Origin: Bacteroidales bacterium
Lineage (GTDB): Bacteria > Bacteroidota > Bacteroidia > Bacteroidales > WCHB1-69
Length of the DNA stretch: 64,000 nt
NCBI GenBank assembly: GCA_017651425.1
Contig: JAGCCZ010000038.1
Coordinates: 1-64,000, forward strand
Reading direction: 5' to 3'
Shown: positions 3,001-64,000 of the stretch, in pieces
Numbering within the stretch: position 1 is the stretch's first letter
Layout of the letters: the number at the start of each line of letters is the position of its first letter
The notes under the pieces: model-generated
Database searches by the model: none
What the model was told of the DNA's origin: nothing
The model's input: the letters and a program-made list of their open reading frames with translations, nothing else
Translations under genes and position numbers: made by a program

Positions 3001-3963
3001 CACCGAAGCCCCGTCAATCGGGCGCCACGACGAGGTGTCGGGCTGGCCGGCCCCGTTCGTGTGAATGAAGCGGTACTCGAAAAGGGTCTCGAAAAAGTCG
3101 TAGTCATAGTTATATACGCCTCTCGGACAGTAAAAATAAGCCCTGAACCTTACGGTGTTGGAGTCGGCATAATTGTTGGGGTTTCTTTTGAATTGGAGAG
3201 AGTTCACACGCACATCGTTCAGTTCCACCGTATGGCTGAAGACCAAGGTATAGGAACAGGCATCGTACGCCTCAATGCGATATGTGCCCGCGGGCAAGCT
3301 GTCGAATGTGTAGTAGTATCTATAATCAGCGTACGTGGAGTCCGTCCCGTTGTGTTGCGGCTGGTTGAAGACCACATAACGGATAGTATCCTGCTGCGCG
3401 TTGGTGAAAATCACGGTATAGGGAAAATTGCCAGAGGTAAGTTTCATCTGCACGCGTCCGCGGTTGCCGCAGGGCAAGGCGTGCCGGTTGCCGCAGCGTT
3501 CGTGCCTCTCTCCCCAATAGATATAGTCATCCTCGGCTATGTTCGCCAGCACCGAGGCTGAAAAAGGGTTATAGGTACTGGTGAGCGCAATCCCATAGAA
3601 CGTGGTGTCCACCAAAACCGGCCCTGTCGGCGTTGTCACATAGCCGGAAACGCCGATATCGTATGTGCCCACGTCCATCGTCAGGATATGGCTGTCGCTG
3701 TAGAAGACGCTGTTATAGAGTTGGTTTTTGTAATGGTACTGAACACCGGAGATAGGATAGGCAACGGAATCGACTGGATGATGTAGCGAGTCGTCCATCG
3801 GGATAAGATGCCCTTGAGCATCACGCAGCGTGACAACGGCCTGGCAGTTGTTGAAACAGTCGCCCACCACGGTATCGATAACGACCATATAGGGAAACTG
3901 CTGCTGTGCTATGGAGAGCAAGCAAGCGAGCATTATGGCAAGCAGGCAGACGAGGCGTTTCAA
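1..3963 (-). CDS. Giant secreted surface protein, 3' end missing (runs off window)
   Basis: One uninterrupted reading frame of 1321 codons continues past the left edge. I place the start at TTG 3963 because the next residues (KRLVCLLAIMLACLLSIAQ) form a signal peptide; an in-frame stop lies at 3981-3979 and the first in-frame ATG (3933) would cut the hydrophobic core. The mature part is rich in Asp, Thr, Tyr and Ser, with scattered Cys and beta-strand-like segments. Near the visible end are two copies of a Cys-containing unit with GCDS: one ends GCDSNITLKVEV and the next begins DTVICEGREIVLGDYHY. Such units are known from Bacteroidota adhesins secreted by the type IX system, usually with a C-terminal sorting domain, which would lie outside the window. 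The start is 23 bp from the stop of the upstream ATPase gene, so cotranscription is possible. The exact function is not known. Confidence 0.8.
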   Translation of the reverse strand, partial: MKRLVCLLAIMLACLLSIAQQQFPYMVVIDTVVGDCFNNCQAVVTLRDAQGHLIPMDDSLHHPVDSVAYPISGVQYHYKNQLYNSVFYSDSHILTMDVGTYDIGVSGYVTTPTGPVLVDTTFYGIALTSTYNPFSASVLANIAEDDYIYWGERHERCGNRHALPCGNRGRVQMKLTSGNFPYTVIFTNAQQDTIRYVVFNQPQHNGTDSTYADYRYYYTFDSLPAGTYRIEAYDACSYTLVFSHTVELNDVRVNSLQFKRNPNNYADSNTVRFRAYFYCPRGVYNYDYDFFETLFEYRFIHTNGAGQPDTSSWRPIDGASVANAGAGIYCDTLKFAGRYCDLYGHTVRFEVRDSCRQETASVTMTLTPPDTTCYVTEMRSAALCFGQVVPDTCHATCDSAVDFTEWYRIWYNCGHYNGYTNYTGSNLFYYTYPLQWVYTDSATGQVIKTDPVNEITVQSYLTNTDVESVYGTYSYLPLPVVRSLVDAHGCVIMSRFDTLLFVRDTTPAIEFYPWKINSNFNRNNYSSCFNWNRTISVYEEGSPFPLFRDSTVVRLVKSPLYNLYNFTATYANGGWTIVKDDTIHNDASVEATGMNVSISENHLSGGLYIFVCETPCGVDTLRIDIDGIYYNDWEWIEEPAYETWQECNDLLVKPVAGKYRCYTYHIDSQVSNDEPIASYNDYYPSIALLSGEVGGYSATSTSMNVPFRFTIPGEYVIRMSFSGCYETYSRIDTIHFVRVRVDFDKAYAVVCDSSANTGTAIARAFNGSRPYTYRLYSQPDMHGSLLGTNQSGLFYSIPMSLGQELSIQVIDSCESSYYINIAAMSIEQSQLLWFEGGTPDPGACVGDTLTLEAFPMNSFITYSWQGPMNFTATGEQINYYVADTLSKGWIVVELLNTGCQTTVKDSLFLNVFSTPQVFISAVNTVCAGDTVEVQLTARGSGTVNFNMGHLFDGAQSFQSLSVLDQDTLSLLFPIESDNLFWVTQVADQYCPGNQQTDTVQVSLYPITSSADSTHISGDDLLVCYGSDAMLFVTSDLNSSCILSWYDNDLQSVVMQQDTLCSAGDTSTFTIPQLVADTTLYVAAWYQDNCPAHIGRADLWMNMQDGTTSILPGQGVRLYDSGGGGSPYANNEAFTHTFQSPNNSLFLVRFNSFGVAAGDTLFVYSNGTIVGAYTGTTLPDDLTLPTSSLTFRFVSDHFVTALGWSIDILTPAAMTEVSASVVHFFDTLTTTVCQTDDPFSYSAFPQIDISDTGIFQLDTTLFSVMGCDSNITLKVEVLPVKSSSLDTVICEGREIVLGDYHYAADGVYQCNFTADNGCDSVV

Positions 3964-57051: not shown

Positions 57052-59397
57052 TCACTCTTTCTTCAGGGCCTCCGCCGGATTCGTCTTTGCGGCGCGGAGG
57101 GTCTGCCAGAGGACGGAGCCGCTGGCGATGACGAACGACAGCAACACCGTCACCACGAAGATCCAGGGATGCAGATCAATGCGGTAAACGAAATCCTCTA
57201 AATAACGCCCGCACAGCCATACAGCCAAGGGAATCGCTATCACGTTGGCTATCAGTATCATGAAAACATACTCATTCAGATTGCGGCGGGTTTCGCTCTC
57301 CAAGGTGCCGCCAAACACTTTGCGGATGGCGATGCACTTCTCGCGCTCGGAGGCGAAATGGGTGCTCATGGCCACCAGACCCAACAACGACAACAGCACC
57401 GAAATGCCCATAATCAGCTCGATGAGGCGCATCTGACGGCGGATCTTGTCATATTGCCGGGCAATCACATTCTCTACAAAATCGTTGTATTCCGGTTCCG
57501 TATAGGTGCCAAACACCTTCTCGCAGTGCTTTTTGTAAACCGCATCAATGGCACGTTTGGCCTCCCTGTGGTCGCCCACAATCTCTAACAACGGATGTCC
57601 GCCTCCTAACCCATAAAGAGGATTGCCATTGCAAAAGACAATGGTATAGTCCTCATCGGCAGCATGCAGGGCATCCAACATGTTGAAATCTTTGATGACA
57701 CCGCACACATCGTTACCGATATTGTCCTGCTTCCAAGCAAAAATCGTGTCGTAGTTATAGACTCCGCGTGGCAACCCCGTCATGCCGGCCACGGCACTTT
57801 CCGTCATCCAGAAACTCGTCGCCTCCGGTTCATGAAACTGTTCAATCACTTGGAAACCCAACATGCGGAACGCCGCCGAGTCACAACTAAACGAAGCAAC
57901 CTTTATGTTCTTTTCCGTCTCGCCAAATTTGGCCATAAGTAAATTCATGGTTAAAACGCCTGGAACATTCTCAGTAAAAGCCAATTCCTTCACACAAGGC
58001 AAGCTGCGAAGCTCGTCGATGAAAGTGGTCTTTTCAGAAAGATCATCCAACTTGGAACTGATAAAATAGAGGTTGTCTGTCTGCAGGCCGACGGGACGAT
58101 TCACCATATGCCGCATCTGCAACTGCATCGTAATCACCAAGGCTATCAGCACGATGGAGATGACGTTTTGAACCACCATGAAGATCCGCGACAACTCTGT
58201 GCGGGAACGGAAGCGGAACGTGCCTTTCACCACATCAATAGGATTGGTCTGCGACACGATGACCGCAGGCAAAACACCAGCCAGCAGCGACACCACAACC
58301 ACCATCAGCAGATAGGCAAGGAGATAACCCGTCGTGAACGGAATGCGCACCGCCACATCTGCCCTCAACAAATCGTTGACAAAAGGCACGATTGCGTCGG
58401 CCAGCAGCAGACCGACGATAAAGCAGCAGAGGGTGAACAGGAACGATTCGGCCAGAAAACGTCCGATGACGGCCGACTTCTGCGCTCCAAGTAATCGCCG
58501 CGAGGCCATCTCCTTGGCACGTTTTCCCACAAGCGCCACGTTCAGGTTGATATAGTTGATGAGGGCGGAAAGCAGCAGCAACAGCCCGACCATAACCACG
58601 TTGCGGAGCATCGACCTGTCACCTTGTTGTAAATGGCATTTTCTATCGCTGAAAAAGATTTCATCCAAACGAATCATCGTGACACCTTCCTTGAAAAGAA
58701 CACTAAAAATATCACCATATTCCTCCTTGCAACGTGCAGTCACTTTTTCTTCCAAAAGCGCATGATCGGTATTCGGCACCACCTTCATGAAAGTATGGAT
58801 AGAATTCTGATAATAAAGCGGGTTTTGTCTGTAAACAGCCATGCACTTGCTGGGTTCTATGTGGCCAATGATATCGGCATCATACAACAAAGAACTACCC
58901 AAATCGGAGAACACGCCTACCACCGTCAGCGTGTCTTCGTCCGCAATCACCTGTTTGCCAACCACTTCCCCTCCCATTTTGGAAGCCAACTTTTCCGAAA
59001 TGAAGGCAACATGGGCTTTAGTGAGATTATCAGGACCACCTTCCCTGAACTGGACGGGAAAGATGTTGAAGAACTCGCGGTCGCAGAACAGGCAATTGCC
59101 GACACACGACTCGTCTTCCGCTTTCAGAAGCTGGTCGTTTTGGAAATAGAAATGGGTCACGCATTCCACTTCGGGAAGTTTGTCGCCAATGATTTCCTTC
59201 ATGCCGTAAGGATTGGTCATATTTTCGCTGCCCACGGCATAAATCCGCTCGCGATCGGGGTTCTCGCGCGGCACGGCATATTGCTGCATCACGTAGCAGA
59301 AGCTGATGATCACGAACGCGAGGCTCACGACGAGCCCCACCGCTTCGACGGCGGTGTAGAGTTTGTTTCTGCTTAGGAATTTGAGGTAACTCTTCAT
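57052..59397 (-). CDS. MacB-type FtsX ABC transporter permease, first gene of promoter-B operon
   Basis: The protein has 781 residues, with the N-terminal MKSYLKFLSRNKLYTAVEAVG and the C-terminal LRAAKTNPAEALKKE nearly identical in DNA to those of the paralogues at 53985 and 61179, while the periplasmic parts are divergent. Signal helix, MacB core, FtsX helices and second periplasmic domain are in the usual order; SEREKCIAIRKVFGGTLESETRRNL marks the last cytoplasmic loop. ATG 59397 is 31 bp from the sigma-54-like promoter B. The ATPase gene follows after 63 bp. Confidence 0.93.
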   Translation of the reverse strand: MKSYLKFLSRNKLYTAVEAVGLVVSLAFVIISFCYVMQQYAVPRENPDRERIYAVGSENMTNPYGMKEIIGDKLPEVECVTHFYFQNDQLLKAEDESCVGNCLFCDREFFNIFPVQFREGGPDNLTKAHVAFISEKLASKMGGEVVGKQVIADEDTLTVVGVFSDLGSSLLYDADIIGHIEPSKCMAVYRQNPLYYQNSIHTFMKVVPNTDHALLEEKVTARCKEEYGDIFSVLFKEGVTMIRLDEIFFSDRKCHLQQGDRSMLRNVVMVGLLLLLSALINYINLNVALVGKRAKEMASRRLLGAQKSAVIGRFLAESFLFTLCCFIVGLLLADAIVPFVNDLLRADVAVRIPFTTGYLLAYLLMVVVVSLLAGVLPAVIVSQTNPIDVVKGTFRFRSRTELSRIFMVVQNVISIVLIALVITMQLQMRHMVNRPVGLQTDNLYFISSKLDDLSEKTTFIDELRSLPCVKELAFTENVPGVLTMNLLMAKFGETEKNIKVASFSCDSAAFRMLGFQVIEQFHEPEATSFWMTESAVAGMTGLPRGVYNYDTIFAWKQDNIGNDVCGVIKDFNMLDALHAADEDYTIVFCNGNPLYGLGGGHPLLEIVGDHREAKRAIDAVYKKHCEKVFGTYTEPEYNDFVENVIARQYDKIRRQMRLIELIMGISVLLSLLGLVAMSTHFASEREKCIAIRKVFGGTLESETRRNLNEYVFMILIANVIAIPLAVWLCGRYLEDFVYRIDLHPWIFVVTVLLSFVIASGSVLWQTLRAAKTNPAEALKKE

Positions 59398-59427
59398 ATC
59401 AAACCATAATAAAACCTGATATGGACA

Positions 59428-59443
59428 GACAGCAATCGTGCCA
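59428..59443 (-). promoter_or_regulatory. Sigma-54-like promoter B (-24 TGGCACG)
   Basis: The minus strand reads TGGCACGATTGCTGTC, 31 bp before ATG 59397. The -24 is perfect; the -12 is weak. Confidence 0.6.
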
Positions 59444-59496
59444 AACTCATAAACCTATGATATACAACAGATTAGTAATACAAGCAACACGCACAA

Positions 59497-59534
59497 TGTA
59501 AAGATCTTTTACAGTGGTGTAAGAGTTCTTTACA
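59497..59534 (-). promoter_or_regulatory. Paired activator sites B (two 17-bp palindromes)
   Basis: TGTAAAGATCTTTTACA (59497-59513) and TGTAAGAGTTCTTTACA (59518-59534), 21 bp apart, lie 54 bp upstream of the -24 element of promoter B. Confidence 0.78.
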
Positions 59535-59571
59535 GATGGTCTGCGCGGGTTGTTATGGATTTGTAGCCAAC

Positions 59572-60993
59572 TCAATCAACAAACAGATCGTCCAGCGTAA
59601 CCTGATATTGGACAGAGACGGAATATTCGTTATGAAAGAGACCGAATGGAGTGATCCAAGTGGGAAGAATACCGTTTCGGGTCTTGGTCTCCCGGACGAA
59701 TGCCGCCGTACGGTTACGGACTTTCAGGTCCTCATTGGAAGTGATGGTGTATTCTGATTGGGTGTATTTGATTTCGCAGAGGTTAACAAGACGATCGGCA
59801 CGTTCGATAATCATATCCACTTGGGCACGTGGAGCTGTGGAACTTCGCCATGAGTAATATTCAACGGCAATCTTGTCAAGGCCAAGAGCATGTCGTACCT
59901 GCCTAATATGAACCATGCACACATGCTCGAAGGCTAATCCTTGCCAACTGTTGAGAACTGGGGTGTTGAGACGCTGCTCCCAATAATCTTCAGTAGTTAG
60001 CTTTTTGGAGAAGGTGAGATGGAAAAGTGTAAAAAGGTCAACCAGCTGGTAATAGGCCTCGTTGGTCTTTAGCCTGCCTCCAATTTTGGTCACATATCGG
60101 CGGATGATGTCGCAATATTCCAGATTTTCAAGCTGTTTACTCAGCGTCCCGCTGGATGATATTTTCAGTTTTTCTGCAATTTCTCCTCTCGTGAGTCCCT
60201 GCTTGTTCTTGCCTAATATCTCAACAATGCGAATGTAAGACTCTGGCGACTTGAACAGAGAGGCGTAAAGACGTTGATACTCCTGTCCAAGTTCAGAATT
60301 TTTATGGAAATAGAGTCTGTCGATGTTTTGGGCAAGGCTCTCTTGAGGGTTGAGCAAACTGAGGTAATAGGGCACGCCCCCAAGCATCATGTAAGTCTCG
60401 ACAATCATCTGCCGTGGCCAGTGGATTTTTTTAGTCTGCAGATAGGATTCGGTTTCTGCTAACGTAAACTGTCTCAAATAAATAGTGTGTGTGGTTCGGT
60501 CATGGAGCCCTCCGTGGTCATTGACTATGTTTTCAATCATCCAAGAGGTGGCGGAACCGCAAACAATAAGTATGACATCTTTACGTAATGCGGCCCAAGT
60601 GTTCCAAAAATGTCCTAAAGCACGGACAAAGCCGGACTTGGGCGTATCAAAGCAAGGGAGCTCGTCAATATAGATAACCTGACGACCTTTGTGCGGCTGT
60701 CTCTCTAAAACAGATTTGAGTCCCTCAAATGCTTCGAGCCAAGTTTTGGGCTGAGGTCCCGTATAACCAACAGCAATCAAGGCACTCGTAAAGGCAAAGA
60801 GTTCCTCTTCGCGGGTGCCTTCTATGATACCAGTGGCTGAGAAGGCGAACTTATTGTCGAAAAATTGTTGTATCAGATATGTCTTACCCACGCGCCGACG
60901 ACCATAAACGGCCACAAATTCAGCTTCCCCAGAATCCTTAACAGCTTGTAACAACCTGATTTCCTGTCTTCTACTGATAAAATTTTTATCCAT
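59572..60993 (-). CDS. Archaeal-type AAA ATPase with winged-helix and DUF234 nuclease-like C-terminus
   Basis: The protein has 473 residues. Walker A is GRRRVGKT (31-38) after the entry motif FISRRQEIRLL; Walker B is VIYIDELPCF near residue 110. A winged helix follows (LTRGEIAEKLKISSSGTLSKQLENLEYCDIIRRY), then the DUF234 region with QVDMIIERADRLVNLCEIKYT, matching a PD-(D/E)XK-like core. This family is common in Bacteroidota and archaea and is not well understood; some members are suspected mobile or defence genes. The -7 element (61025-61017) and a nested inverted repeat lie upstream. It interrupts the permease array. Confidence 0.87.
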   Translation of the reverse strand: MDKNFISRRQEIRLLQAVKDSGEAEFVAVYGRRRVGKTYLIQQFFDNKFAFSATGIIEGTREEELFAFTSALIAVGYTGPQPKTWLEAFEGLKSVLERQPHKGRQVIYIDELPCFDTPKSGFVRALGHFWNTWAALRKDVILIVCGSATSWMIENIVNDHGGLHDRTTHTIYLRQFTLAETESYLQTKKIHWPRQMIVETYMMLGGVPYYLSLLNPQESLAQNIDRLYFHKNSELGQEYQRLYASLFKSPESYIRIVEILGKNKQGLTRGEIAEKLKISSSGTLSKQLENLEYCDIIRRYVTKIGGRLKTNEAYYQLVDLFTLFHLTFSKKLTTEDYWEQRLNTPVLNSWQGLAFEHVCMVHIRQVRHALGLDKIAVEYYSWRSSTAPRAQVDMIIERADRLVNLCEIKYTQSEYTITSNEDLKVRNRTAAFVRETKTRNGILPTWITPFGLFHNEYSVSVQYQVTLDDLFVD

Positions 60994-61016
60994 GACAATA
61001 CCGTTTTATGACAGGC

Positions 61017-61025
61017 GCAAAGATA
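61017..61025 (-). promoter_or_regulatory. -7 promoter element TATCTTTGC of the DUF234 ATPase
   Basis: It matches TAnnTTTGC, 24 bp before ATG 60993, and borders the nested inverted repeat. Confidence 0.7.
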
Positions 61026-61043
61026 CAATTTTATTCAGATAGT

Positions 61044-61130
61044 TCGCCAAAACAAATAAAAATGATTAAAAATGGCGAAATATAGAGTTTATAAATCGCC
61101 ATTTTTACAATTTATGATTTGTTTTGGCGA
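61044..61130. promoter_or_regulatory. Nested inverted repeats upstream of the DUF234 ATPase
   Basis: The outer arms TCGCCAAAACAAAT (61044-61057) and ATTTGTTTTGGCGA (61117-61130) are exact reverse complements; the inner arms AAAAATGGCGA (61068-61078) and TCGCCATTTTT (61096-61106) likewise. All four contain TGGCGA or its complement. Position immediately upstream of the promoter suggests operator sites. Confidence 0.75.
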
Positions 61131-61143
61131 TGGATCTACCCCC

Positions 61144-61173
61144 TGTAGAGACGCAAAATTTTGCCTCTCTACA
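61144..61173. repeat. Palindromic repeat, copy 2
   Basis: A 30-nt palindrome TGTAGAGACGCAAAA / TTTTGCCTCTCTACA with one mismatched pair lies 6 bp past the stop of the permease at 61179. Confidence 0.8.
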
Positions 61174-61178
61174 CCTCT

Positions 61179-63554
61179 TTATTCCTTTTTCAGGGCCTCC
61201 GCAGGGTTCGTCTTCGCGGCACGTAACGTCTGCCATAACACGGAGAGGAAGGCCAGCAGCATAGTGACCACAACCGCCACGACAATGATCCAGCCGTAAT
61301 GCTCAATACGGTAGGCGAAACGTTCCAAGTATTTGCCGCTAAGCCAAACAGCAAGGGGAGCTCCGATGATTGCGGCAATTCCGACGAGTAGCATGTAGTC
61401 TTTCACCGTGCGCCGCAGCTCGCGGTTGACATCGCTGCCGAATACCTTGCGGATGGCGATGCTGTGGCTGCCCTCGTCACAATAATAGGTGCTCATGGCA
61501 ACGAGACCGAGAAGGGAAAGCAACACCGACAGACCCATGAAAATCTCCAACAGCCGTACGGTGCGTTTGGCCTCTTCCAATTGTTCCAACATCAGATCAT
61601 CCACATACCCGCACTTGATGTCTCTGCCAACGCCCTCCTTTTTCTTCACCCACTGGTTGTAGTGATCCATAATCTGTCTTTCCGCTTCCGCATGGTCACC
61701 CGTAGTCTTGACGAGCAAGCCAACTCCGTAGCCCGTTTTCTCAATATCAAACACAAAAACACCTCCATTTAAATTATAGTCGCCATCGGCACAGGCAGCT
61801 CCTTTGACAGGAAAATCATGCACAATACCTCCAATGTAATCCACATTCAGAAAGTAATAGGTGCTAAAATATGCGGCTATCCTATTCAAAAATGAAGTGG
61901 AGGTATCGGAAACACCGCTTTCTACCAAGACATGCTCGCCCAACCACAGCGAATTGGCTTTGGGATGGCCGAAATCCTCAATCACCTCAAACCCCAACAG
62001 TTGGAAATAGGTTGAGTCGCATAGAACCGTTACCATTTTTATCTCGCTTTTTGAATCGTCTTCCATATCTGGAATGCCAAAGCTATAGTTGATTTTCCCA
62101 GGATAACCTTGTCCGATACCGACTGCTTCAACACATGGCAACGACTTGAGTTCTTCCACGATGGGCAAATATGCTCTTGGAGGATAAGGCTCATCAATAA
62201 CAAAAAGGTCATTTGTCTGAAGATGGGTGGGGCGGTTAACCATGTGCCGCATCTGTACCTCCATCACGATAGCCAAGGCAATCAGCACAAACGAAAGCAC
62301 ACTCTGAAAAACGATGAATATCTTGTTGAACCACATTTTGTTGTATTGGCGGAATGCGCCGCGAACCACCTCAATCGGGGCATAACGGGAGGCGAACAAA
62401 GCAGGCAACCAGCCTGAAAGTACACCTATCAGCAGGATGCCACTCACATACGCGACTATGTATGCGGGCGTCATCAACAGCCGTAGTTGGATGTCGGCAT
62501 CGGGAGTATTGCTGACTAACAGCCGATTCATCGTGGGCACCAGAGCGTAAGCCAACAGAAAGGCAAAACCGAAACATACTGCCGTGAACAACACGGATTC
62601 GGCAATAAGTTTGCCCATGACGGACAGTTTCTGCGCCCCTAAAAGCCGGCGGGTGGCCATCTCTTTGGCACGTTTTCCCACCAAAGCCATGCTGAGGTTG
62701 ATGTAGTTGATGACAGCCGACAGCAAAAGAAGGATGACGATGGCCGTAAGAATCCGGATGTTTGTGAGATTCCCCGTGTGAATACTTTTATTCGAATGGG
62801 AATAGGAATTGAAGAATATCTCCTTATAATTGTACACCACAAGCCCTTTTAACCACTCTTCACCCCAAGAACTATAATTTTGATTGCAGAGGTCAAGTAC
62901 TTTGTTTTTGAAAGCCTCCTCGTCCGTGTTCTCCATTCTCTGAAAGAGAGTGAGCACACCCTGGATGATTCGAAAAGGCGTTTCGTCCTCATAGATTTTG
63001 TCATCAAAAGGGACCAACACGTCAAAATACTGAATCAGAGAATTTTGGACATCTTTCATGATTCCGCAAATGACATACTGCTTTTTATCAATGACAATGG
63101 TCTTGCCTAACAAATTCCCATTGTCCTCAAACTGTCTGGCCATCGTCTCACTGATAATGGCATTGTTGGCTTCGGAAAAGTGGTCCTTGCTCCCGTCAAC
63201 GAACGTGTAATATGGGAAAAGGGTGAAAAAGTCCTGGTCAACGAACTTAATGTTGGCGGGATAGGTTTTATCCTGAAAAACAAGCGCATCATCTTTTCCC
63301 GAAATTCTAGTAATCGCCTCAATTTCAGGAATATTGGTCTCCAGAGATTCTTTATCCCAAACGGACAGCCCCAGGTGTAACGTATTACTAAGGCAGTAAA
63401 TGCGGTCATGATTGGGATTCTCATTCACGACAGCCCACTGCTGCGCCACGTAGCTGCCAATCAGGATGACGAAAGCCAAGCTCACGACCAGCCCCACCGC
63501 CTCGATGGCGGTGTATAATTTGTTTCTGCTTAGGAATTTGAGATAACTGCTCAT
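61179..63554 (-). CDS. MacB-type FtsX ABC transporter permease
   Basis: The protein has 791 residues. ATG 63554 gives MSSYLKFLSRNKLYTAIEAVG; two upstream ATGs (63560, 63593) are less likely because the family starts here. The ends match the paralogues at 53985 and 57052, including LRAAKTNPAEALKKE, and the last loop has DEGSHSIAIRKVFGSDVNREL. Periplasmic parts are distinct, so the ligand may differ. It is a single-gene unit under promoter C, with a palindromic repeat (63573-63602) between promoter and start. No own ATPase gene is linked. Confidence 0.93.
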   Translation of the reverse strand: MSSYLKFLSRNKLYTAIEAVGLVVSLAFVILIGSYVAQQWAVVNENPNHDRIYCLSNTLHLGLSVWDKESLETNIPEIEAITRISGKDDALVFQDKTYPANIKFVDQDFFTLFPYYTFVDGSKDHFSEANNAIISETMARQFEDNGNLLGKTIVIDKKQYVICGIMKDVQNSLIQYFDVLVPFDDKIYEDETPFRIIQGVLTLFQRMENTDEEAFKNKVLDLCNQNYSSWGEEWLKGLVVYNYKEIFFNSYSHSNKSIHTGNLTNIRILTAIVILLLLSAVINYINLSMALVGKRAKEMATRRLLGAQKLSVMGKLIAESVLFTAVCFGFAFLLAYALVPTMNRLLVSNTPDADIQLRLLMTPAYIVAYVSGILLIGVLSGWLPALFASRYAPIEVVRGAFRQYNKMWFNKIFIVFQSVLSFVLIALAIVMEVQMRHMVNRPTHLQTNDLFVIDEPYPPRAYLPIVEELKSLPCVEAVGIGQGYPGKINYSFGIPDMEDDSKSEIKMVTVLCDSTYFQLLGFEVIEDFGHPKANSLWLGEHVLVESGVSDTSTSFLNRIAAYFSTYYFLNVDYIGGIVHDFPVKGAACADGDYNLNGGVFVFDIEKTGYGVGLLVKTTGDHAEAERQIMDHYNQWVKKKEGVGRDIKCGYVDDLMLEQLEEAKRTVRLLEIFMGLSVLLSLLGLVAMSTYYCDEGSHSIAIRKVFGSDVNRELRRTVKDYMLLVGIAAIIGAPLAVWLSGKYLERFAYRIEHYGWIIVVAVVVTMLLAFLSVLWQTLRAAKTNPAEALKKE

Positions 63555-63572
63555 AATCATTCGGTTTCTATC

Positions 63573-63602
63573 TGTAGAGACGCGCCATGGCACGTCTCTA
63601 CA
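63573..63602. repeat. Palindromic repeat, copy 3, in a leader
   Basis: TGTAGAGACG arms flank a GCCATGGC core over 30 nt. Unlike the other copies it is upstream of a permease start, between promoter C and ATG 63554. Confidence 0.8.
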
Positions 63603-63610
63603 ATTATCAT

Positions 63611-63626
63611 ATCATTTTCCGTGCCA
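63611..63626 (-). promoter_or_regulatory. Sigma-54-like promoter C (-24 TGGCACG)
   Basis: The minus strand reads TGGCACGGAAAATGAT. It lies 57 bp before ATG 63554, which is 26-28 bp more than in A and B, close to the length of the intervening palindromic repeat. Confidence 0.55.
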
Positions 63627-63678
63627 AAAACATAAACCTTTGGTTGTCAATCATCTAAACATCAAACAAAAGAGCCGC

Positions 63679-63717
63679 TGTAAAGATTTCTTACAGCAGG
63701 TGTAAGGTTTCTTTACA
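63679..63717 (-). promoter_or_regulatory. Paired activator sites C (two 17-bp palindromes)
   Basis: TGTAAAGATTTCTTACA (63679-63695) and TGTAAGGTTTCTTTACA (63701-63717) lie 53 bp upstream of the -24 element of promoter C. Confidence 0.78.
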
Positions 63718-63814
63718 GGTATCATCATTTTATAAAAGTCATCATTGAAACTTTCATAATGGCAAAGATACTATTTTTGGGACAAGTCATCGCCCTTTTG
63801 CAAAAACGAGTTCC

Positions 63815-63882
63815 TTGGCGTAATCTCATAAAAAAATCGAGATTGCGCCAGAATTCTACCACAAGGTTGGCGCAATCTCATA
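63815..63882. promoter_or_regulatory. Direct and inverted TTGGCGCAATCTCATA repeats upstream of the right-edge ATPase
   Basis: A 16-nt direct repeat (63815-63830 and 63867-63882, one mismatch) brackets an inverted copy GAGATTGCGCC (63839-63849), an exact reverse complement of 63869-63879. The -7 element follows at once (63891-63899). Confidence 0.75.
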
Positions 63883-63890
63883 TTTTTTTG

Positions 63891-63899
63891 TATCTTTGC
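63891..63899 (+). promoter_or_regulatory. -7 promoter element TATCTTTGC of the right-edge ATPase
   Basis: It matches TAnnTTTGC, 16 bp before ATG 63916. Confidence 0.7.
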
Positions 63900-63915
63900 G
63901 CCAAAATTCAAAAAC

Positions 63916-64000
63916 ATGAAAGAGAACATCATCGGCCGTAAAGAACAGATAATCAAGCTGGAAAAGTATTTGGCAAGTGAAAAATCGGAGTTCGTCGCTA
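63916..64000 (+). CDS. N-terminus of an AAA ATPase (runs off window)
   Basis: Only 28 codons are visible: MKENIIGRKEQIIKLEKYLA followed by SEKSEFVA. The IGRKEQI...L...EFVA pattern is the entry motif that precedes Walker A in archaeal-type ATPases like that at 59572-60993 (FISRRQEIRLL...AEFVAVYGRRRVGKT). A strong -7 element and a repeat cluster lie upstream. The rest is outside the window. Confidence 0.7.
   Translation, partial: MKENIIGRKEQIIKLEKYLASEKSEFVA

What the first reader, a model, noticed from the sequence alone, without database searches (positions are those of the whole stretch)
61044..63899. Nested inverted repeats immediately upstream of AAA-ATPase promoters
The DUF234-type ATPase (61044-61130) and the right-edge ATPase (63815-63882) each have a stack of repeats with a TGGCG core directly before a TATCTTTGC element. 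Sequences differ between the two loci but the layout is alike. The DUF234 ATPase contains a winged helix, so self-regulation through these sites is plausible; they might also be boundaries of a mobile unit, since these ATPase genes split the permease array.
Basis: partly seen in the sequence, partly recalled or inferred. Interest (0 to 1): 0.52.

Follow-up and report, generated by a model that had tools for sequence, protein, structure and literature searches.

The report
Private operators of ATPase-nuclease defence candidates
Each gene of a large, little-studied family of ATPase-nucleases (candidate anti-phage genes) seems to carry, at its promoter, its own pair of DNA repeats with a fixed 52-base pitch and a gene-specific sequence, which suggests that each protein recognises and controls only its own gene.

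Summary
The repeats are real and reach far beyond the window. ATPase A (59572-60993, minus) and ATPase B (63916 onward, plus) each have alternating inverted half-sites repeated at 52 bp beside a TAnnTTTG promoter box. In 114 distinct homologues from related genomes, 88 beat all 100 shuffles. The commonest direct-repeat pitch is 52-54 bp, about five helical turns (15 of 25 clusters against 0 of 24 controls). The sequences differ between subfamilies, but the copies at one locus mostly change together. Repeat and gene stay together when the flanks do not. In the host genome the A and B motifs occur only at their own genes. Both proteins hit the unvalidated single-gene defence candidate PDC-S27. 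They combine a STAND-type ATPase, a winged helix and an intact PD-(D/E)XK signature. The best reading is a cognate autoregulatory operator, probably for repression; binding is not shown. The repeats are not mobile-element ends, because they are absent downstream, but gene plus operator behaves as a cassette. The B slot is empty, scarred or holds a PDC-S01-type ATPase (whose repeats favour 32-33 bp) in relatives. I found no description of these operators in the papers searched. It is a new variant of a known kind and directly testable.

The parts
59572..60993 (-). ATPase A: STAND/AAA ATPase, winged helix, PD-(D/E)XK; PADLOC PDC-S27
   Evidence: ORF; ATPase_2 50.5 bits; PDC-S27 E 8e-183; invariant GRRRxGKT, D110-E111, Q391xD393, C406-E407-x-K409
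61018..61025 (-). TAnnTTTG -7-type promoter box of ATPase A (TATCTTTG)
   Evidence: read; such a box within 75 nt of the start in 109 of 114 homologues against 57 of 128 controls
61044..61078 (-). operator A, promoter-proximal 35-bp inverted unit
61096..61130 (+). operator A, distal 35-bp inverted unit, 52 bp from the proximal one
63815..63851 (+). operator B, distal unit TTGGCGTAATCTC...GAGATTGCGCCAG
63867..63904 (+). operator B, proximal unit TTGGCGCAATCTC...TTGCGCCAA; its right arm runs over the promoter box
63891..63898 (+). TAnnTTTG -7-type promoter box of ATPase B
   Evidence: read; for the family
63916..64000 (+). ATPase B, first 85 bases in the window; the gene runs on to about C33:65367; PADLOC PDC-S27
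   Evidence: ORF in L006 8917-10368; PDC-S27 E 4e-192; ATPase_2 52.6 bits
61179..63593 (-). ABC permease between the two ATPases
   Evidence: ORF, relatives
59398..61178 (.). stretch (ATPase A plus operator) replaced by about 16 nt in relative G033
   Evidence: L173 against L006
63789..64000 (.). window part of the stretch (operator B plus ATPase B) missing at the same slot in relative G031
   Evidence: L161 against L006: homology resumes at window about 63788 and, on the other side, at the HlyD stop codon

Best explanation
The repeats are cognate autoregulatory operators. ATPase A and ATPase B are each a single-gene cassette: a STAND-type ATPase with a winged helix and a C-terminal PD-(D/E)XK nuclease domain, behind a promoter flanked by four half-sites of alternating orientation. 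The pair of half-sites repeats every 52 bp (about five turns), so bound protomers lie on one DNA face and can cooperate. The winged helix (residues about 250-318) most likely reads a gene-specific code inside a shared frame (in the A clade TTTTGG-code-TTAT). Bound protein covers the region just upstream of, or over, the TAnnTTTG box and represses its own transcription, holding a potentially harmful nuclease low; loss or remodelling of the complex would derepress it. Because every paralogue has its own code, the eight PDC-S27-type copies in one cell would not cross-regulate. Shown: anatomy, pitch, promoter position, conservation with the gene, concerted change of half-sites at most loci, absence of other A and B sites in this genome, and gene-plus-operator turnover. 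Inferred: that the ATPase itself is the binder, that the effect is repression, and that the physiological role is anti-phage defence.
For: (1) Repeats upstream of 114 distinct PDC-S27-type homologues: 88 of 114 beat 100 of 100 dinucleotide shuffles; against 128 control upstream regions of the same genome P = 7e-26, and P = 1e-13 on 45 clusters at 70% identity. (2) Constant pitch: among clusters or controls with a strong direct repeat, offset 52-54 in 15 of 25 clusters against 0 of 24 controls (Fisher P = 2e-6). Among named homologues, 23 of 31 have a 52-55 bp direct repeat as their best repeat and 29 of 31 beat all 60 shuffles. (3) Promoter position: a TAnnTTTG box in 109 of 114 against 57 of 128 controls; of the 88 significant repeats 14 span or overlap the box, 63 end within 40 nt before it, 8 lie further and 3 have no box. 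(4) Co-inheritance: at 70-85% protein identity 83% of sampled pairs share operator sequence, against 1% for DNA further upstream and 12% for DNA downstream. (5) Concerted change: A-clade half-sites read GGCGA, GGCAG, GGGGA or GGAAA, with the copies at most loci sharing one code. Residues 279 and 283 of the recognition-helix region sort with the code: S,T; S,A; P,T/S; Q,L (exception L251, V279 with GGCGA). (6) Private: A unit 2 of 2 in 2.83 Mb at its own gene; B half-site exact only at its own operator, the other hits at control level. (7) DNA-binding domain: profile A1 matches MepR/MarR repressors at 260-334 (E 0.003); B 234-313 matches a phage transcriptional regulator family (E 2e-4). (8) Fold: best PDB matches are archaeal ATPases 2qen and 2fna (Z 19.7 and 18.9).
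Against: No binding or expression data. 26 of 114 homologues do not beat all shuffles, and some (L214, L123, L189) show no repeat. The segment test is weak: winged-helix identity predicts a shared operator only slightly better than the rest (AUC 0.63 against 0.55-0.57 at cluster level). The residue-code match in the A clade is confounded by phylogeny: GGGGA needs up to 3 changes on a poorly resolved tree, and L251 departs from it. Some A-clade operators are imperfect: L246 and L261 have one odd half-site, L253 mixes codes. In STAND proteins such as CED-4 and NLRs, also good fold matches, a winged helix can be structural and not bind DNA (recalled). Most operators lie upstream of the box, which also fits activation.
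Confidence: 0.72

Rival explanations
1. The repeats are ends or recombination sites of a mobile unit that the ATPase-nuclease cuts and moves, and the ATPase genes are small mobile elements inserted in the permease array.
For: A and B are absent from the array in relatives; the same slot holds a PDC-S01-type ATPase in two relatives; A orthologues at 81-83% identity sit outside any permease array; the protein carries an intact nuclease signature.
Against: Half-sites are only upstream: 53 upstream, 0 in the gene, 3 downstream over 25 loci. The repeats are phased pairs at promoters, not one at each end. The operator stays behind when the gene is lost (L164). No target-site duplication was seen in the compared slots, though none was searched for formally.
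Confidence: 0.08
2. The repeats are sites for another host regulator (a silencer or nucleoid protein), not for the ATPase.
For: No direct binding evidence exists for the ATPase; the AT-rich frame could suit a nucleoid protein.
Against: The sequence differs from paralogue to paralogue in one cell, follows the ATPase clade, and the A and B sites occur nowhere else in the genome. The pitch follows ATPase type: 52 bp for PDC-S27, 32-33 bp for the DUF4143 type. It recurs on a Wolbachia phage (56 bp) and a Desulfosarcina plasmid (54 bp).
Confidence: 0.1
3. RNA-level elements: terminators, attenuators or structured leaders.
For: Long inverted repeats can form hairpins; operator A lies between the permease stop and the ATPase start on one strand.
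Against: Operator B lies between two divergent genes, so nothing terminates there. Most repeats lie upstream of the promoter box, hence outside the transcript. No Rfam match. The 52-bp direct-repeat pitch is a DNA-helix feature.
Confidence: 0.03
4. Chance repeats in AT-rich intergenic DNA.
For: AT-rich upstream DNA gives many weak repeats; 13 of 128 controls lie above the control 90th percentile by construction, and a few controls score as high as the family.
Against: P = 7e-26 against controls, fixed pitch absent from controls, conservation with the gene.
Confidence: 0.01

Closest known systems
PADLOC PDC-S27 (ATPase fused to a PD-(D/E)XK domain, phage-defence candidate)
   Same: Both window proteins match the model end to end (E 8e-183 and 4e-192). 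PMC12988326 (passages read) describes S01 and S27 as ATPase domains fused to PD-(D/E)XK, largely without experimental validation; PMC13356809 (passages read) counts 2865 PDC-S27 and 10358 PDC-S01 in rumen genomes.
   Different: Neither paper's passages that I read mention promoter repeats; in PMC12988326 the word operator occurs 0 times and promoter 0 times. The private fixed-pitch operator is the new part.
PADLOC PDC-S01 (AAA_14 plus DUF4143)
   Same: Sister type that occupies the same array slots in G033 and G040 and also has promoter repeats.
   Different: Weaker and with another pitch: 16 of 37 beat all shuffles; direct repeats at 31-33 bp in 10 of 17 strong cases against 2 of 42 controls.
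AbiEi and Rv2827c autoregulated antitoxins (PMC7319586, abstract read)
   Same: Defence or toxin-antitoxin modules whose DNA-binding protein represses its own promoter through one or two sets of inverted repeats.
   Different: There the antitoxin is a separate protein. Here one protein would be sensor, nuclease and repressor. No homology was tested.
Archaeal ATPases PABY2304 (2qen) and SSO1545 (2fna)
   Same: Best fold matches over residues 1-328 (Z 19.7 and 18.9).
   Different: Solved chains are about 350 residues and the match does not cover the nuclease domain; no operator is known to me.
Orc1/Cdc6 initiators bound to DNA (2qby, 2v1u)
   Same: AAA ATPase with winged helix that binds repeated DNA sites; fold matches Z 14.2 and 14.0.
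   Different: They act at origins, have no nuclease domain (recalled), and fit worse than the archaeal ATPases.

Membership tests
PADLOC PDC-S27 | match to the PDC-S27 profile over its length | tested here: met
   A 4-471 of 3-473/474, E 8e-183; B 2-482 of 2-473/474, E 4e-192
PADLOC PDC-S27 | anti-phage activity | not testable with these tools
   validation reported as pending for most PDCs (PMC12988326, passages)
STAND/AAA ATPase | Walker A and Walker B | tested here: met
   invariant GRRRxGKT (G31-T38) and D110-E111 in 19 sequences
STAND/AAA ATPase | NBD-helical-winged-helix fold | tested here: met
   AF2 model pLDDT 87; 2qen, 2fna, CED-4 and NLR among the best matches
PD-(D/E)XK nuclease | catalytic D ... 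ExK | tested here: met
   invariant Q391xD393 and E407-x-K409 in 19 sequences
PD-(D/E)XK nuclease | fold | tested here: met
   C-terminal model, pLDDT 74 only; top rows EndoMS 5gke Z 8.5, rmsd 3.1, 104 aligned; 2vld Z 8.5; 1y88 Z 8.2; McrC, FokI and Shedu lower. Moderate Z, so supportive only
PD-(D/E)XK nuclease | DNA or RNA cleavage | not testable with these tools
   no assay
autoregulated operator (works like AbiEi or MarR-type repressors) | inverted repeats overlapping or abutting own promoter | tested here: met
autoregulated operator (works like AbiEi or MarR-type repressors) | cognate protein binds and represses | not testable with these tools
   needs EMSA and reporter
transposon or mobile-element end | repeats at both ends of the unit | tested here: not met
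   half-sites 53 upstream against 3 downstream in 25 loci

The most novel reading that the evidence does not exclude
The operator is more than a dial: the STAND-nuclease is stored on its own promoter, assembled on the 52-bp-phased sites as an inactive complex. Displacement or loss of that DNA complex during phage takeover both induces the gene and frees or activates the nuclease. The private code then lets many one-gene sentinels coexist in one cell without cross-talk, an immune repertoire diversified by paired operator and recognition-helix change, with different pitches for the PDC-S27 (52 bp) and PDC-S01 (32 bp) types.
Probability: 0.13. Interest if true: 0.88.

Novelty: new variant of a known kind. 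Interest (0 to 1): 0.64.

Why it matters
[quoted passage not shown] A private, fixed-pitch operator gives a first concrete handle: it predicts what these proteins bind, which residues set specificity, that the genes are kept off, and that paralogues are orthogonal. It also offers natural sets of orthogonal operator-repressor pairs for Bacteroidales, and a marker (operator scars) for tracking gain and loss of single-gene defence cassettes.

Tried and rejected
Boundary or transposon reading: rejected as the main role because half-sites are not downstream. Terminator or leader RNA: rejected for B by the divergent gene layout and for the family by promoter position; Rfam empty at E 0.1 over 59000-64000. 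Regulon of several genes: A and B motifs not found at other genes. Phage target of the A code: five viral contigs carry TCGCCAAAAC..GTTTTGGCGA, but no matching ATPase P-loop was seen in them and the surrounding repeats look unrelated; not followed. Specificity segment: tested on 6062 pairs and 977 cluster pairs; the winged helix ranks first but weakly. A broader order-level search at E 1e-165 found matches in only 4 of 393 genomes, own included. NCBIfam gave no family for A or B at E 0.001.

Loci without a convincing repeat, told for balance: own-genome L016, L017, L024, L034 and L029 (of 27 loci tested there 18 beat all shuffles, and in L050 and L051 the best repeat is far from the start, so the count flatters); 26 of 114; 21 of 37 DUF4143-type; Segatella plasmid L322, phage contig L327, viral L314 and L318; Haladaptatus L330. 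Halorientalis L329 has a 15-bp repeat of another kind. Of 16 plasmid and virus loci, 9 beat all 100 shuffles; L325, L316 and L317 are near copies. Rows dropped: five ORFs (no start near the expected place or short upstream), and identical proteins were collapsed to 114, 37 of 41 loci kept, 31 of 32 loci read (L265 left out, partial match), 5 of 7 non-family AAA loci could be placed; near-copies L241, L245, L258 and L259 and the unassigned codes were left out. The half-site count used 25 loci: those of the 114 with a strong repeat, an exactly shared 11-mer and at least 800 nt downstream.

Papers: searches. PMC13356809, PMC12988326 and PMC1913061: passages only; PMC7319586: outline and abstract; a guessed DOI gave an unrelated paper and was not used. 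That the operators are undescribed rests on these searches only; the original guilt-by-embedding paper was not read.
Full report
What was checked. The window is contig C33 of a 2.83-Mb genome; its nearest named relatives are rumen Bacteroidales assemblies. In stack A, TGGCG stands at 61073 and 61125 and CGCCA at 61045 and 61097; in stack B, TGGCG stands at 63816 and 63868 and CGCCA at 63846 and 63899. The pitch is thus 52 bp in both (one B interval is 53), although the sequences differ. The A unit and the B repeat are unique in the window and far above shuffled expectation, with the caveat that the patterns were read off the sites. Both abut a TATCTTTG box that fits the TAnnTTTG -7 element of Bacteroidetes promoters (the element is recalled; the enrichment 109 of 114 against 57 of 128 is).

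Is it general? In the own genome, Pfam searches list 16 ATPase_2 and 27 AAA_14 hits. Upstream repeats of 27 family loci score higher than 128 control upstream regions taken from the same genome (P = 8e-7); all 8 PDC-S27-type genes (L007, L008, L009, L011-L015) beat 100 of 100 shuffles. In 104 genomes of the family, 48 carry homologues at E 1e-60. I took the upstream DNA of 114 distinct proteins: 88 beat all 100 shuffles and the set exceeds controls with P = 7e-26. Collapsing to 45 clusters at 70% identity leaves P = 1e-13.

The fixed pitch. The direct-repeat offset is the most striking result. Averaged over clusters, offset 52 stands 17 standard errors above controls, 53 stands 11, 63 stands 10 and 54 stands 6.5, with most neighbouring offsets near zero. 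Of 25 clusters with a strong direct repeat, 15 have it at 52-54; of 24 such controls none has. 52 and 63 bp are close to five and six helical turns. In 31 named homologues from several Bacteroidota orders, down to 37% identity (Olivibacter), 23 have a 52-55 bp repeat as their best repeat and 29 beat all 60 shuffles. Outside Bacteroidota the same layout is seen on a Wolbachia phage (56 bp) and on a Desulfosarcina plasmid (54 bp), and an inverted unit on a Butyrivibrio plasmid; several other plasmid and viral loci do not show it. The DUF4143 (PDC-S01) type is weaker, with 16 of 37 beating all shuffles, and prefers 31-33 bp: 10 of 17 strong cases against 2 of 42 controls.

Who reads it? Operator sequence follows the protein. 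In sampled pairs of 70-85% identity 83% share operator sequence, against 1% for DNA 250-385 nt upstream and 12% for DNA downstream; below 50% identity sharing is near background. In the A clade the half-site frame TTTTGG-code-TTAT is kept, while the code is GGCGA, GGCAG, GGGGA or GGAAA and the copies at a locus mostly change together (L246, L253 and L261 are imperfect). Residues 279 and 283, in the recognition-helix region of the winged helix, read S,T; S,A; P,T/S; Q,L for these four codes in turn GGCGA, GGCAG, GGGGA, GGAAA, with L251 (V at 279, code GGCGA) as the exception. This is suggestive only: the tree leaves the GGGGA lineages unresolved, and other columns such as 61 and 322 correlate as well. 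Over all clusters the winged helix is the best but weak predictor of a shared operator. In the genome the A unit occurs exactly twice and the B half-site exactly twice without mismatch, all at their own genes.

What the protein is. Both match PADLOC PDC-S27 end to end. The AF2 model of A (pLDDT 87) has an ATPase, a helical part, a winged helix and a C-terminal domain. The N-terminal 330 residues match archaeal ATPases 2qen and 2fna best, then NLR/CED-4 and Orc1/Cdc6 chains. The C-terminal domain alone (pLDDT 74) matches mostly PD-(D/E)XK nucleases at moderate Z (8.5 for EndoMS), and the QxD and CExK residues are invariant in 19 sequences. A profile of the family matches MarR-type repressors over the winged helix, and B matches a phage transcriptional-regulator family there. 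Structure and sequence thus fit a DNA-binding ATPase with a live nuclease site; activity is untested.

The permease array and empty sites. The array carries the ATPases in some relatives and not in others. Relative G033 has about 16 nt in place of the 1.78-kb stretch with A and its operator. Relative G031 lacks B: homology stops at the HlyD stop codon and resumes at window about 63788, just outside the operator. In G011 the B gene is gone but its operator remains at 93% identity. In G033 and G040 the same slot holds a PDC-S01-type ATPase with 33-bp repeats (the G033 gene was scanned and matches PDC-S01), and the ATPase-less slot of G031 holds a scar with 32-bp repeats, 69 aligned columns at 72% to that operator. 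A orthologues at 81-83% identity lie outside any permease array in G069 and, on a short contig, G066. So gene plus operator is a cassette in a turnover slot. How it moves is not shown, and the repeats are not its two ends.

Mechanism and status. The most economical account is negative autoregulation by the ATPase-nuclease through a private, cooperative, helically phased operator. Position favours repression: the right arm of unit B runs over the promoter box, and 14 of 88 repeats span or overlap the box, while most of the rest end within 40 nt before it. Activation from upstream sites cannot be excluded. The anti-phage role rests on the PADLOC label; PMC12988326 and PMC13356809 (passages) call these systems abundant, and the former says that most are unvalidated. 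In the papers searched I found no description of these operators; most subscription papers and all bioRxiv preprints are outside that library.

Noticed in passing
63574-63601 and (imperfect) 61144-61173: A dispersed palindrome GTAGAGACG-10 nt-CGTCTCTAC: 25 exact copies in the genome, 24 of them 28 nt and one 27 nt, with a central part that varies but stays largely palindromic (control pattern 0). One copy lies just upstream of the operator of another PDC-S27 gene (C61:9865).
   Followed up: partly
L161 (G031:C94) about 3614-3668: Slot without ATPase that keeps an array of 23-nt repeats at 32 bp resembling the operator of the PDC-S01-type gene found in the same slot of G033 and G040: a probable scar of a lost defence cassette.
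   Followed up: partly
L164 (G011:C79), locus about 763-1047: Orphan B operator (93% identical) without the B gene.
   Followed up: partly
L307-L311 (IMG/VR contigs): Five viral contigs share a conserved array of TTGGCGA/TCGCCAAAAC repeats without a matching ATPase P-loop in the stretch; may be an origin-like iteron array.
   Followed up: no
L325 (Wolbachia phage WO, MN180249.1): Phage WO carries a PDC-S27-like ATPase ('archaeal ATPase, fused to C-terminal DUF234') beside head genes, with two inverted units at 56-bp pitch upstream.
   Followed up: partly
own genome and genus, PF13635: All 40 of 40 genus genomes carry DUF4143 hits, 1 to 29 each.
   Followed up: no
control gene upstreams in L067 (C8:20001-39000): A cluster of genes preceded by related CCGCAGA/TCTGCG palindromes scored as high as the family; another dispersed repeat family.
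   Followed up: no
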